The translations under genes were made by a program, and so were the position numbers. This document shows, piece after piece, positions 31,403 to 48,941 of a DNA stretch of 64,000 nt. Positions within the stretch are counted from its first letter, which is position 1. Every line of letters starts with the position of its first letter. The notes under the pieces were generated by a model that saw only the letters and a list, made by a program, of their open reading frames with translations, was not told the origin of the DNA and ran no database searches. Source of the stretch: a virus; the IMG/VR virus record IMGVR_UViG_3300037606_000123, positions 1-64,000 of that record. The stretch is one strand, 5' to 3'.

Positions 31403-32158
31403 AAAAAAAAAAAATCAATCTTGGTAGTTGCTAAAGCTACATATTTTAAATCAAGCCCTGACCGCATTATCTCTTTAAAAACAGTCTACCTCCTGAAAGC
31501 TTACTGTTAAATCTGAAATACCTTATAATAAACAACATCTTTTAGCAGATTGTAACAAAAGGATTTGGGCTTTTTATGTGGTCGCGTCACTTGTTAAATC
31601 CTCACCTTTCCAATTCCGTATACAGATCTCCTAAAGATCTGTTGCATATATTGTTAGTCACTGTTTATTATAAACAAGATTAATTTTAATGTTTTATGTA
31701 AACAATTTCCATCTCATTTCGAGTTCGTCTTTAGTTTACACTGGTTTAAACGTTTAACCTTAATCTAAGACACACTTTGATTAGTAAATAATATAAACTC
31801 TACAAAGTTGTACCTTGACATAACAAAACTATTATAGGCTTATGTTTAAGTTCTGTTTCTTACGTGTTATAGCTTCAAATATACACCCACAATTGGATAA
31901 AGTTTAATATTTTTTTATTATTAATTTTTTACTAGATAATTCTTTTAATAACTAAAGATATAATACTCACATATTCTTATTACACCCCACGTCATTAATG
32001 ACAGAATTATTACTTTTAAATTGAAATTTATATTTTTCATTTCATTAAATTATGTTTTCCTACTCATAAGGCTTTTCAGAATACTCCCCGTTTTTTAAGT
32101 GTTTTCTGGTCTTCACTTTTTAAAATTATGTATTCATTAGATTACAAATAATTAATTT
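31403..32158 (-). ncRNA. Candidate large structured RNA, about 750 nt
   Basis: No gene-like frame on either strand. On the minus strand it begins just after a TATATTTG promoter box (32166-32173) and ends with a hairpin (GTAG/CTAC, 31424-31440) and 12 T (31414 down to 31403), as an independent transcript would. Many helices are visible: ACAGATCT/AGATCTGT (31622-31642), AACAGT/ACTGTT (about 31479-31508), AATCTG/CAGATT (31510-31551), TGTAAAC/GTTTACA closing 31697-31740, and GTCATTAATGAC (31991-32002). AAGCCC (31453) with GGGCTT (31567) and GACCGCAT (31460) with ATGTGGTC (31576) would cross, making a pseudoknot. Large phage RNAs such as GOLLD and ROOL lie near tRNA genes; I cannot say whether this is one of them. 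Confidence 0.65.
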
Positions 32159-32604: not shown

Positions 32605-32727
32605 TGTTGTTGATAGGATTCGAACCTATAATAGTACCATACTCTTTGTATCAAAACAAATACACAGATTTGAACTGTGATAATCAGTCTCTTAGACCGA
32701 CCTGTCTACCAGTTTCAGCACAACAAC
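32605..32727 (-). tRNA. Composite tRNA-like gene with two T-arms
   Basis: 123 bases. Acceptor GTTGTTG/CAACAAC closes the whole. The 5' part has a Leu-like D-arm (CTG AAACTGGTAGA CAG), an anticodon stem TCGGT/ACTGA with loop CTAAGAG (AAG at 34-36), and a T-arm CACAG TTCAAAT CTGTG. Instead of the acceptor, about 50 more bases follow: a hairpin TTTG TTTTGATA CAAA, a small arm AGTA TGG TACT, and a second T-arm ATAGG TTCGAAT CCTAT. It looks like a fusion of two tRNA genes or a tRNA with a large insertion. Confidence 0.55.
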
Positions 32728-45084: not shown

Positions 45085-45117
45085 AAAAAACCGACTAAAA
45101 TACGTTTAGCCGGTTTA
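45085..45117 (-). terminator. Terminator of the tmRNA gene
   Basis: On the minus strand AAACCGGCTAAA pairs with TTTAGTCGGTTT (one mismatch) and is followed by six T. It lies 31 bases after the mature tmRNA 3' end. Confidence 0.75.
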
Positions 45118-45147
45118 TCTATGAATGTTAAAACATTCGTGCCACGG

Positions 45148-45540
45148 TGGAGGTGGAGGGATTCGAACCCCCGTTTTTATAAGAAAATTCATTATTTTCT
45201 ACATGTTTATTTATCTTATTCACAAGATAACAAAATATTTATTTTTTGTTATAACAAACATTTTATTCAATTTTAAAGTTTGAATAAAAAACAACTTTTT
45301 GTTTACTGATTGGTTAATCCTTTCGGATCGACTTAAGCTGTTGCTAATTCAAAAGCTGTCTCAGTTACTACAGCTGTAGAAGAAACTTCTACTGAACCAC
45401 CTAAGTCAGAAACTAATTTGTTAAAAGAAGTTTCGTTTTTAAAGTTTGCATTTATTTTTTAGTACTTTATTTAAGTGTATTTACAAAAACACTACATGCT
45501 TATATTGATCATACATTACAAATCAAATCCAAACACCCCC
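45148..45540 (-). ncRNA. ssrA: tmRNA (SsrA)
   Basis: 393 bases. The tRNA-like ends are GGGGGTG (45540 down) with CACCTCC (45149-45155) and A73; the T-arm is GGGGG TTCGAAT CCCTC. GGATTTGA after the acceptor is typical. The tag frame starts at GCA (45447-45449) after AAATAAAT and reads ANFKNETS to AFELATA, then TAA at 45333-45335: 38 codons, much longer than the usual 8-30. Downstream helices include TCCGAAAGGA (45316-45327) and AT-rich stems. It rescues stalled ribosomes and tags the peptide. CCA is not encoded. A promoter box is at 45569 and ClpP lies directly upstream. Confidence 0.92.
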
Positions 45541-45568
45541 ATAAATCAAAGAACATATATTTCTATTA

Positions 45569-45576
45569 CAAATATA
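45569..45576 (-). promoter_or_regulatory. Promoter box for tmRNA
   Basis: Minus-strand TATATTTG at the complement of 45569-45576, about 29 bases before the mature 5' end of tmRNA, in the gap after clpP. Confidence 0.6.
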
Positions 45577-45612
45577 TAAATTATATATTAAAAATAAAAA
45601 TATGTTTAATTT

Positions 45613-46224
45613 TTATTTTATTTTATCAATTGCACCATATGTAATTGCATCTTTAGCTTTCATCCAATTATCACGTTCAGCATCTTTTAAAACTTTTTTA
45701 TATGAAACACCTGTATGTTTAGCTATAATTTCAATTAAATCATGTTTTATACTTTGCATTTCATTATTATAAATAGCAATATCAGTTGCTTGTGAAAAAT
45801 GCATTCCACCTAATGGTTGATGCATCATCATTTTACTATTAGGTAAAATAAATCGATTTCCTTTTTCACCACAAATAGCTAATATAAATGCCATACTTGC
45901 AGCTAATCCTACAACACATGTATACACAGGACAATCAATCATTTGAATTGTATCATAAATAGCTAAACCATCATAAACAGATCCACCTGGACTATTAATA
46001 TACAACCAAATTGGTTCAGATTTATCAGAATTATTATCTAAAAATAATAGTTGTGCTATTATTGTATTTGCAATAAAATCATCTATCTCTTCACCTAAAA
46101 AAATAATTCTATCTTGCATTAATCTATCAAACACTGATAATATTTGCATATTAGAATTACTCTCTTCAATAACCATTGGTGTAAAACTTTTTGGTTTTTT
46201 AAATACTGATGAAACTTTTGTCAT
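45613..46224 (-). CDS. clpP: ClpP-like serine protease
   Basis: 203 residues. Catalytic residues are in place: Ser near 110 in GLAASMA, His near 135 in MMMHQPLGG, and Asp near 185 in DAERDNWM. INSPGGSVYDGLAIYD is the ClpP substrate-channel motif, and length matches cellular ClpP (about 200). It forms a barrel that needs an ATPase such as host ClpX. It lies 70 bases upstream of tmRNA on the same strand. In some phages ClpP-like proteins act as head proteases, but the full-length ClpP sequence favours the housekeeping type. Confidence 0.9.
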   Translation of the reverse strand: MTKVSSVFKKPKSFTPMVIEESNSNMQILSVFDRLMQDRIIFLGEEIDDFIANTIIAQLLFLDNNSDKSEPIWLYINSPGGSVYDGLAIYDTIQMIDCPVYTCVVGLAASMAFILAICGEKGNRFILPNSKMMMHQPLGGMHFSQATDIAIYNNEMQSIKHDLIEIIAKHTGVSYKKVLKDAERDNWMKAKDAITYGAIDKIK

Positions 46225-47899: not shown

Positions 47900-48442
47900 T
47901 TATTTATTTAAAAATTGATTTTCTACGTCTGGTGTTAAATAAACATTATTATCTGATAAATATAATTTTCCTTTATTAGATAAATAATTTTTAACATCCA
48001 TTGTAATTATAACTCCTGTTGATTTATTTTTTATTGCTTTTTGATTCGCTCTAAATTGAGCCAATTCAAGATTTGTAGTCCAATGTACATGTTGTCTGTT
48101 ACCTGCTCTTAAACTTGATAAAATGATTAAATCATGTGCTTTCTGATCGGTTCCATGATATAACAAAAATGTTTTTTGTATCGATGTAATTTGAGATAGT
48201 TTTTTGTTTATTGCAACATTTGATGAATGACCTTGATTTGCACATATTAATGTTTCATCATCATTAAAACTAAATCTTTTTTTATCGTTTGTTTCAACTA
48301 TATTTTTTAAATCAATTAATGTAATATTAAAATGATTTAAAATACTATCAACACACATCCAACCATCAGAATTTAATTTTAAAGGTGTTGGATCATGTCT
48401 TAATAATTTACTTAATGTTCTTGATATTTTATCTAAATTCAT
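47900..48442 (-). CDS. kptA: RNA 2'-phosphotransferase KptA/Tpt1
   Basis: 180 residues from ATG 48442; a GTG at 48469 overlaps the previous gene. The motif ISRTLSKLLRHDP with NSDGW, then KKRFSF and ANQGHSSNV, LYHGT and HVHWTTNLELA match Tpt1/KptA, an NAD-dependent enzyme of the ADP-ribosyltransferase fold. It removes an internal 2'-phosphate left by tRNA ligation and releases ADP-ribose cyclic phosphate. The catalytic Arg-His-Arg-Arg set appears present. Its role in a phage is probably RNA repair; abnormal tRNAs occur in this genome. Confidence 0.85.
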   Translation of the reverse strand: MNLDKISRTLSKLLRHDPTPLKLNSDGWMCVDSILNHFNITLIDLKNIVETNDKKRFSFNDDETLICANQGHSSNVAINKKLSQITSIQKTFLLYHGTDQKAHDLIILSSLRAGNRQHVHWTTNLELAQFRANQKAIKNKSTGVIITMDVKNYLSNKGKLYLSDNNVYLTPDVENQFLNK

Positions 48443-48461
48443 ATTACAATAATATAAATAA

Positions 48462-48941
48462 TTATTCACTTATAAAATATTTTAATACTAACATATTTTC
48501 TAATGTTATATTATCTGGTAATTGATCTAATTCAATTTTATTGAATTCAACAGTTGTTTTCATTTGTAAATTTTTATTATATTTAGAAATCTGTATGTCA
48601 CGTTCTTCAATTATATTAGTATAATTTTTTTTTAATAAATTAATATCAATAAGCCATTGTTCATCTGTTTCATCAATATCGTAACCATTATTTGAATTTA
48701 TTAATGGATTATTTGATGCATCACGTTTAGTATATTTATCACATAAGAATATTCTTTTTTTATCATATTCTTCAAATTCATCTGATGGTTTAACCGAATT
48801 AACCAATTCATTTATTGCATCATCTAAAATAACAATATTTTTAGATATTGTAAATGTAAGTTTTACACCTTCTAGTTTTTTTAATGATTCTAAATTACTT
48901 TTTAAAGCATCTGATAATATAAATAAGTCTATATTTTTCAT
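48462..48941 (-). CDS. DUF1617-like phage protein
   Basis: 159 residues. The order SLKKLEGVKLTFTISKN, EEYDKKRIFLCDKYTKRDAS then a helical C-terminus fits DUF1617, a phage family of unknown function often near structural genes. It overlaps the GTG, but not the ATG, of kptA. Confidence 0.55.
   Translation of the reverse strand: MKNIDLFILSDALKSNLESLKKLEGVKLTFTISKNIVILDDAINELVNSVKPSDEFEEYDKKRIFLCDKYTKRDASNNPLINSNNGYDIDETDEQWLIDINLLKKNYTNIIEERDIQISKYNKNLQMKTTVEFNKIELDQLPDNITLENMLVLKYFISE

What the first reader, a model, noticed from the sequence alone, without database searches (positions are those of the whole stretch)
45148..46224. Phage tmRNA gene next to a phage ClpP gene
A full tmRNA (tRNA-like ends, resume codon GCA, TAA) lies directly behind a full-length ClpP with an intact Ser-His-Asp triad, both on the minus strand. 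Known biology: tmRNA tags stalled peptides and ClpXP degrades them. A phage with both could keep ribosomes free and recycle or remove chosen proteins in late infection. No SmpB or ClpX is visible here. The sequence shows both genes; the joint role is inference.
Basis: partly seen in the sequence, partly recalled or inferred. Interest (0 to 1): 0.85.

Follow-up and report, generated by a model that had tools for sequence, protein, structure and literature searches.

The report
Phage clpP–tmRNA unit, very long tag
A large virus of bacteria carries its own ribosome-rescue RNA (with an unusually long 38-residue tag), the RNA's protein partner SmpB, and a real ClpP protease whose gene sits directly in front of the RNA in what looks like one late transcription unit; each part is known in phages, but this linkage and tag length appear undescribed.

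Summary
A complete one-piece tmRNA (RF00023, 73.2 bits) lies 72 nt behind a full-length ClpP with an intact Ser-His-Asp triad. A diverged relative (ClpP 73-74% identical) keeps the clpP-tmRNA order and a 35-codon tag from the same resume site; Bacteroidota tmRNAs have 9-10-residue tags. Two things were missed. The phage does encode SmpB, 3 kb beyond the window. And clpP-tmRNA looks like a separate unit in both phages: hairpin terminator, T4-type late promoter TATAAATA, clpP, tmRNA, terminator. ClpP is not the head protease: a gp21-like one sits between portal and capsid genes. ClpX is absent from this 123-kb, possibly incomplete record but present in some other phages with tmRNA and ClpP. Most likely this is a phage-owned late trans-translation system that frees ribosomes and tags stalled chains for phage ClpP working with a host or off-contig unfoldase. 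Parts known; linkage and tag length make it a new variant. Joint function is inference.

The parts
45146..45540 (-). one-piece tmRNA (ssrA) gene
   Evidence: ARAGORN; RF00023 73.2 bits over the full model. Its partner SmpB is at record 66,982-67,434 (+), outside the window
45333..45449 (-). tag reading frame: resume codon GCA, 38 codons, stop TAA: ANFKNETSFNKLVSDLGGSVEVSSTAVVTETAFELATA
   Evidence: translation; Rfam-aligned resume site; same site opens 35 codons in L019; resume position nt 92 within the range of other tmRNAs
45453..45454 (-). U-A at -5/-4 of the resume codon (equivalents of E. coli U85 and A86)
   Evidence: read from sequence; rule from PMC2481249
45317..45328 (-). hairpin AUCC-GAAA-GGAU directly after the tag stop
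   Evidence: predicted with one compensatory C-G to U-A change in L019
45613..46224 (-). clpP, 203 aa, catalytic S110, H135, D185
   Evidence: PF00574 231.7 bits; triad invariant; solved ClpPs ~186 bits
46243..46250 (-). T4-type late promoter TATAAATA, 18 nt before the clpP start
   Evidence: motif enriched 7.5-fold upstream of ORFs in the record, strand-biased 30 to 6; also upstream of clpP in L019
46280..46311 (-). A+T-rich hairpin followed by a T run, terminator of the preceding gene
   Evidence: -12.2 kcal/mol, z -3.3
45088..45116 (-). intrinsic terminator after the tmRNA
   Evidence: 12-pair stem plus T tail; -14.9 kcal/mol, z -5.9; counterpart in L019
45569..45576 (-). TATATTTG box between clpP and tmRNA, possible extra tmRNA promoter (weak)
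   Evidence: motif 5-fold enriched upstream of ORFs but on few hits; read from sequence

Best explanation
A large T4-like phage, probably of a Bacteroidota host, carries its own trans-translation system and expresses part of it late. The phage tmRNA, charged with alanine by host AlaRS and bound by phage SmpB, enters ribosomes stalled on cut or stop-less mRNAs, resumes translation at GCA and adds the 38-residue tag (after the tmRNA's own alanine), then terminates and frees the ribosome. Tagged chains are degraded by a protease containing the phage ClpP, whose gene is transcribed with the tmRNA from one late promoter; the unfoldase is host ClpX or one encoded outside this contig. Shown: the genes and their intactness, their shared and flanked unit in two diverged phages, SmpB in the same genome, a long tag frame open in both. 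Inferred: expression timing, tagging activity, ClpP-tag coupling, unfoldase, benefit to the phage.
For: Intact tmRNA with the conserved resume context; SmpB over two equivalog cut-offs in the same record; true ClpP with intact triad. Same clpP-tmRNA order and a 35-codon tag in L019, ClpP 73-74% identical, with three compensatory acceptor-stem pairs and G3-U70 kept. Terminators on both sides of clpP-tmRNA in both phages; TATAAATA before clpP in both. tmRNA, SmpB and ClpP co-occur in other huge phages, some with ClpX. A tmRNA lies close to clpP also in L023 and L026.
Against: No ClpX in the record. The tag ends ELATA, not the ALAA of likely hosts, so ClpX recognition is uncertain. The phage ClpP stops at IDKIK, short of the C-terminal end of most ClpPs, so docking to an unfoldase is untested. 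Tag peptide similarity between the two phages is weak and codon-position identity flat; an open frame of this length has a 5-11% chance by composition. No expression data.
Confidence: 0.55

Rival explanations
1. The phage tmRNA and SmpB rescue ribosomes, but ClpP is functionally unrelated (turnover of phage or host regulators late in infection); adjacency only reflects a shared late unit, and tagged chains go to host proteases.
For: ClpP occurs in many phages without tmRNA; in other phages with both, the genes are mostly 25-90 kb apart.
Against: Adjacency with flanking terminators conserved in two diverged phages; tmRNA near clpP in a second phage group, L023 and L026.
Confidence: 0.27
2. The long, non-host tag is a private signal: it routes stalled products to a protease containing phage ClpP (or protects them from the host ClpXP), separating phage rescue from host quality control.
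For: Tags of 35-38 aa against 9-10 aa in Bacteroidota; ends LATA and LMAA; clpP in the same unit; several other phage tmRNAs have 24-26-aa tags.
Against: No adaptor or unfoldase specific for the tag was found; the relative's LMAA is close to ordinary ClpX signals.
Confidence: 0.13
3. The tag is short (ETAFELATA), as ARAGORN calls it, and the long frame is chance.
For: U-A also stands at -5/-4 of that site.
Against: It would start at nt 179, against nt 89-107 in ten phage tmRNAs and 93-99 in 25 Bacteroidota tmRNAs. L019 has no such site while the GCA site is identical.
Confidence: 0.05

Closest known systems
Bacterial tmRNA-SmpB-ClpXP trans-translation
   Same: One-piece tmRNA with G3-U70, resume codon at the usual place, SmpB, ClpP with intact triad
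   Different: Encoded by a phage; 38-residue tag; clpP and tmRNA in one unit; no ClpX in the record
tmRNA and SmpB of huge phages (PMC7162821); Lak phages and LR756504
   Same: tmRNA, SmpB and ClpP in one phage genome; portal of this record is nearest to huge phages
   Different: There the genes are far apart, tags are 10 or 24 aa, and ClpX is also present
Other phage tmRNAs: mycobacteriophages and Bacillus phage G (PMC4131195), Melnitz two-piece tmRNA (PMC9004378), AP-J-162 with tmRNA and Clp genes (PMC11242549)
   Same: Phage-borne tmRNA, in AP-J-162 together with Clp genes
   Different: No clpP-tmRNA unit or 35-38-residue tag described in the passages read
Mollicute tmRNAs with long tags read by Lon (Mesoplasma florum)
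   Same: Tag longer than in most bacteria
   Different: Those hosts lack active ClpXP and their tags end NYAFA (PMC9382460); here ClpP is linked and the tag is 35-38 aa
ClpP-like head-maturation proteases
   Same: Same S14 fold family
   Different: ClpP subfamily model 245.6 bits against 92.4 for the head-protease model; the phage has a separate gp21-like head protease

Membership tests
tmRNA (RF00023) | covariance model score over cut-off | tested here: met
   73.2 bits, cut-off 47
tmRNA (RF00023) | alanine identity pair G3-U70 | tested here: met
   acceptor stem read from sequence; kept in L019 amid three compensatory changes
tmRNA (RF00023) | resume codon after PK1 with U-A at -5/-4, then an open tag and stop | tested here: met
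   rule from PMC2481249
tmRNA (RF00023) | tags nascent chains on stalled ribosomes | not testable with these tools
   needs experiment
SmpB | equivalog model over cut-off | tested here: met
   NF003843 138.6 (cut-off 130) and TIGR00086 132.3 (cut-off 119.1) bits
ClpP (peptidase S14) | full-length S14 domain with Ser-His-Asp | tested here: met
   PF00574 231.7 bits; triad
ClpP (peptidase S14) | NCBIfam ClpP equivalog or subfamily cut-off | tested here: not met
   NF001368 245.6 against 249, TIGR00493 216.5 against 308.6: a diverged ClpP
Phage head-maturation protease (ClpP-like) | best fit to head-protease models or place in the head gene block | tested here: not met
   92.4 against 245.6 bits; gp21-like protease adjacent to portal, 66 kb away. 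PHROGs' best hit is labelled head maturation protease, which that library does for ClpP-like proteins in general
Complete tmRNA-ClpXP pathway | ClpX unfoldase encoded | tested here: inconclusive
   none in this record, but the record may be incomplete; present in Lak phages, LR756504 and G019

The most novel reading that the evidence does not exclude
The phage tmRNA tag is a phage-specific sorting signal: its 35-38-residue length and non-host end direct stalled products to a protease containing the co-expressed phage ClpP, so the phage runs a private ribosome-rescue and degradation route separate from the host's GENNYALAA-ClpXP route.
Probability: 0.2. Interest if true: 0.85.

Novelty: new variant of a known kind. 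Interest (0 to 1): 0.6.

Why it matters
It shows a virus owning most of a bacterial quality-control pathway (the RNA, its protein partner and the protease), with the protease and tagging-RNA genes in one apparent late unit and a tag far longer than those of likely hosts. This makes it testable why phages keep their own trans-translation: to free ribosomes, recycle amino acids, or choose which proteins are destroyed. The long tags are also candidate new degrons.

Tried and rejected
ARAGORN's short tag was rejected on position, comparison and the Rfam alignment. The head-protease reading was rejected (separate gp21-like protein; model scores). A recent host copy was rejected (host tags uniform and different). 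DNA similarity of the tmRNA against INPHARED gave only tRNA T-arms. Pattern searches on the tmRNA 3' and 5' ends gave no related tmRNA. A single-sequence ClpP search of viral contigs found nothing; the profile search found L019. Similarity of the two tag peptides is weak (core p about 0.02) and codon-position identities are flat (15, 19, 16 of 35), so coding conservation inside the tag is not proven by those tests; the chance of an open frame by composition is about 0.05 and 0.11, so the resume-site argument carries the weight. The sigma-70 promoter scan was below chance level and was not used. A literature search for jumbo phage plus trans-translation found nothing.

Full report
OBSERVATION. 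ARAGORN calls a one-piece tmRNA at 45146-45540 minus; Rfam RF00023 matches over the whole model at 73.2 bits, E 1.5e-26, cut-off 47. ClpP is the 203-aa ORF 45613-46224 minus, PF00574 231.7 bits, about 186 bits to solved ClpPs, with S110, H135 and D185 invariant in the alignment with phage homologues. Only 72 nt separate the two genes.

TAG. ARAGORN gives ETAFELATA from nt 179 of the tmRNA. The Rfam alignment puts the resume codon at GCA, nt 92, in AAAAAATAAAT-GCA-AAC. That frame is open for 38 codons. According to PMC2481249 the resume codon lies 12 nt after PK1, with U85 and A86 conserved upstream; both bases are present at -5 and -4. Of 30 tmRNA loci fetched from Bacteroidota genomes, ARAGORN called 26; in 25 the tag starts at nt 93-99 and is 9-10 aa (GENNYALAA and close variants), and the other, L231, is an evident mis-call. 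In ten phage tmRNAs read by the resume site the start lies at nt 89-107. So nt 92 fits and nt 179 does not. Tag lengths among these phages: 38 (window), 35 (L019), 26, 25, 24, 24, 13, and 10 in four. Whether 38 is the longest known tag was not checked against the full tmRNA database.

RELATIVE. A profile search found L019 (IMGVR_UViG_3300019459_000172), ClpP 73-74% identical. Its tmRNA starts 48 nt after clpP on the same strand, RF00023 46.3 bits, just under the cut-off of 47. The same AATAAATGCAAAC resume site opens a 35-codon tag, ANTKNSAFSKIAEALAPSSFSNEVISTEDNVLMAA, ending in the same TAAGTCGATC context. The length difference is 9 nt, a multiple of three. L216, from another metagenome contig of 29.5 kb, carries an identical tag and neighbourhood. 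The surrounding genes (KptA, acidic ORFs, SLT transglycosylase, NT5C and others) are shared. Between the two tmRNAs the acceptor stem has three compensatory pairs while G3-U70 is kept, and a GAAA hairpin after the stop has one. Weak points: the tag peptides are only weakly similar (p about 0.02) and codon-position identity is flat.

TRANSCRIPTION UNIT. In both phages a terminator-type hairpin precedes clpP and another follows the tmRNA. TATAAATA, the T4 late promoter consensus (PMC9004378 quotes TATAAAT), is 7.5-fold enriched upstream of ORFs in this record, with 30 same-strand against 6 opposite-strand hits within 60 bp of starts. It lies 18 nt before clpP, before clpP in L019, and before the capsid and head-protease genes. 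A gp55-like late sigma factor hit is in the record (phrog_234, E 7e-6). So clpP-tmRNA is most likely one late unit; a TATATTTG or TATAATTG box between the genes might give the tmRNA a second promoter (weak). All of this is inferred from sequence.

GENOME. The window is the first 64 kb of a 123,031-bp IMG/VR record of unknown completeness. T4-like portal, gp21-like protease, gp23 capsid, gp32 and DNA polymerase B are present. The nearest portals belong to huge phages LR756502, LR756504, LR745206 and LR756501 at 38-42% identity, so the record may be part of a larger genome. SmpB is at record 66,982-67,434 plus and passes two equivalog cut-offs. The ClpX model TIGR00382 gives no match anywhere in the record. 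The Bacteroidota host is inferred: best cellular ClpP matches are nearly all Bacteroidota, portal relatives include Prevotella and Tenacibaculum phages, and there is a DUF805 RNA motif (its Bacteroidota association is from memory).

CLPP CLASS. ClpP-subfamily models score 245.6 bits against 92.4 for the ClpP-related head protease. In a 167-row tree the window ClpP and L019 form a supported pair with viral L020, inside a mix of phage and Bacteroidota ClpPs (quick method, long branches; head proteases were not in the tree). With a separate head protease next to the portal, the head-protease reading fails. PHROGs' label 'head maturation protease' for the best hit is a family-level annotation.

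PRECEDENT. ClpP, tmRNA and SmpB co-occur in Lak phages, LR756504 and one IMG/VR contig (G009), but 25-90 kb apart. ClpX is also present in the Lak phages (split in Lak-A1) and LR756504, and together with ClpP and tmRNA but without an SmpB match in another contig (G019). In L023 and L026 a tmRNA with a 24-25-aa tag lies 0.6-1.5 kb from clpP, on the other strand. Papers report tmRNA and SmpB in huge phages (PMC7162821), ClpP in jumbo phages as a protease possibly deployed against the host (PMC7824862), tmRNA in about 2% of phage genomes (PMC9004378), and tmRNA plus Clp genes in AP-J-162 (PMC11242549). None of the passages read describes a clpP-tmRNA unit or tags this long in a phage. Only open-licence papers could be searched.

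MECHANISM. See best explanation. Shown: genes, intactness, linkage, SmpB, long tag frame in two phages. Inferred: late timing, tagging, degradation by phage ClpP, unfoldase identity, benefit. The tag end ELATA departs from the ALAA of Bacteroidota tags, while the relative's LMAA is closer, so recognition by host ClpX is the least certain step.

Noticed in passing
window 32605-32727 (-): A 123-nt tRNA-Leu-like gene that ARAGORN misses; it holds an extra internal T-arm-like hairpin (CACAGTTCAAATCTGTG) before the real T-arm, as if two tRNA ends were fused.
   Followed up: partly
window 47900-48469 (-): RNA 2'-phosphotransferase (Tpt1/KptA family), also present in the relative L019 close to clpP. 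Might belong to RNA repair, with a weak RNA ligase hit elsewhere in the record.
   Followed up: no
window 32053-32121 (-): DUF805 RNA motif (RF03081, 70.8 bits) among the phage tRNA genes.
   Followed up: no
L011:1533-1748 (-): A short viral contig with a permuted (two-piece) tmRNA and predicted tag GKSISMVPQAFRMAV.
   Followed up: no
Lak phages MK250016 and MK250024, and LR756504: These huge phages encode tmRNA, SmpB, ClpP and ClpX together, apparently the whole trans-translation and degradation kit.
   Followed up: partly
L020 record (IMGVR_UViG_3300014508_000071, 54.5 kb): ClpP closest to the window/L019 clade and SmpB present (175 bits), but no convincing tmRNA found in the contig.
   Followed up: no
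L023 record (G005): The ClpP match contains one TAG, a possible sign of stop recoding in this phage.
   Followed up: no
record 110198-116546, beyond the window: T4-like head block with an 821-aa gp21-like protein, far longer than T4 gp21, perhaps fused to scaffold.
   Followed up: no
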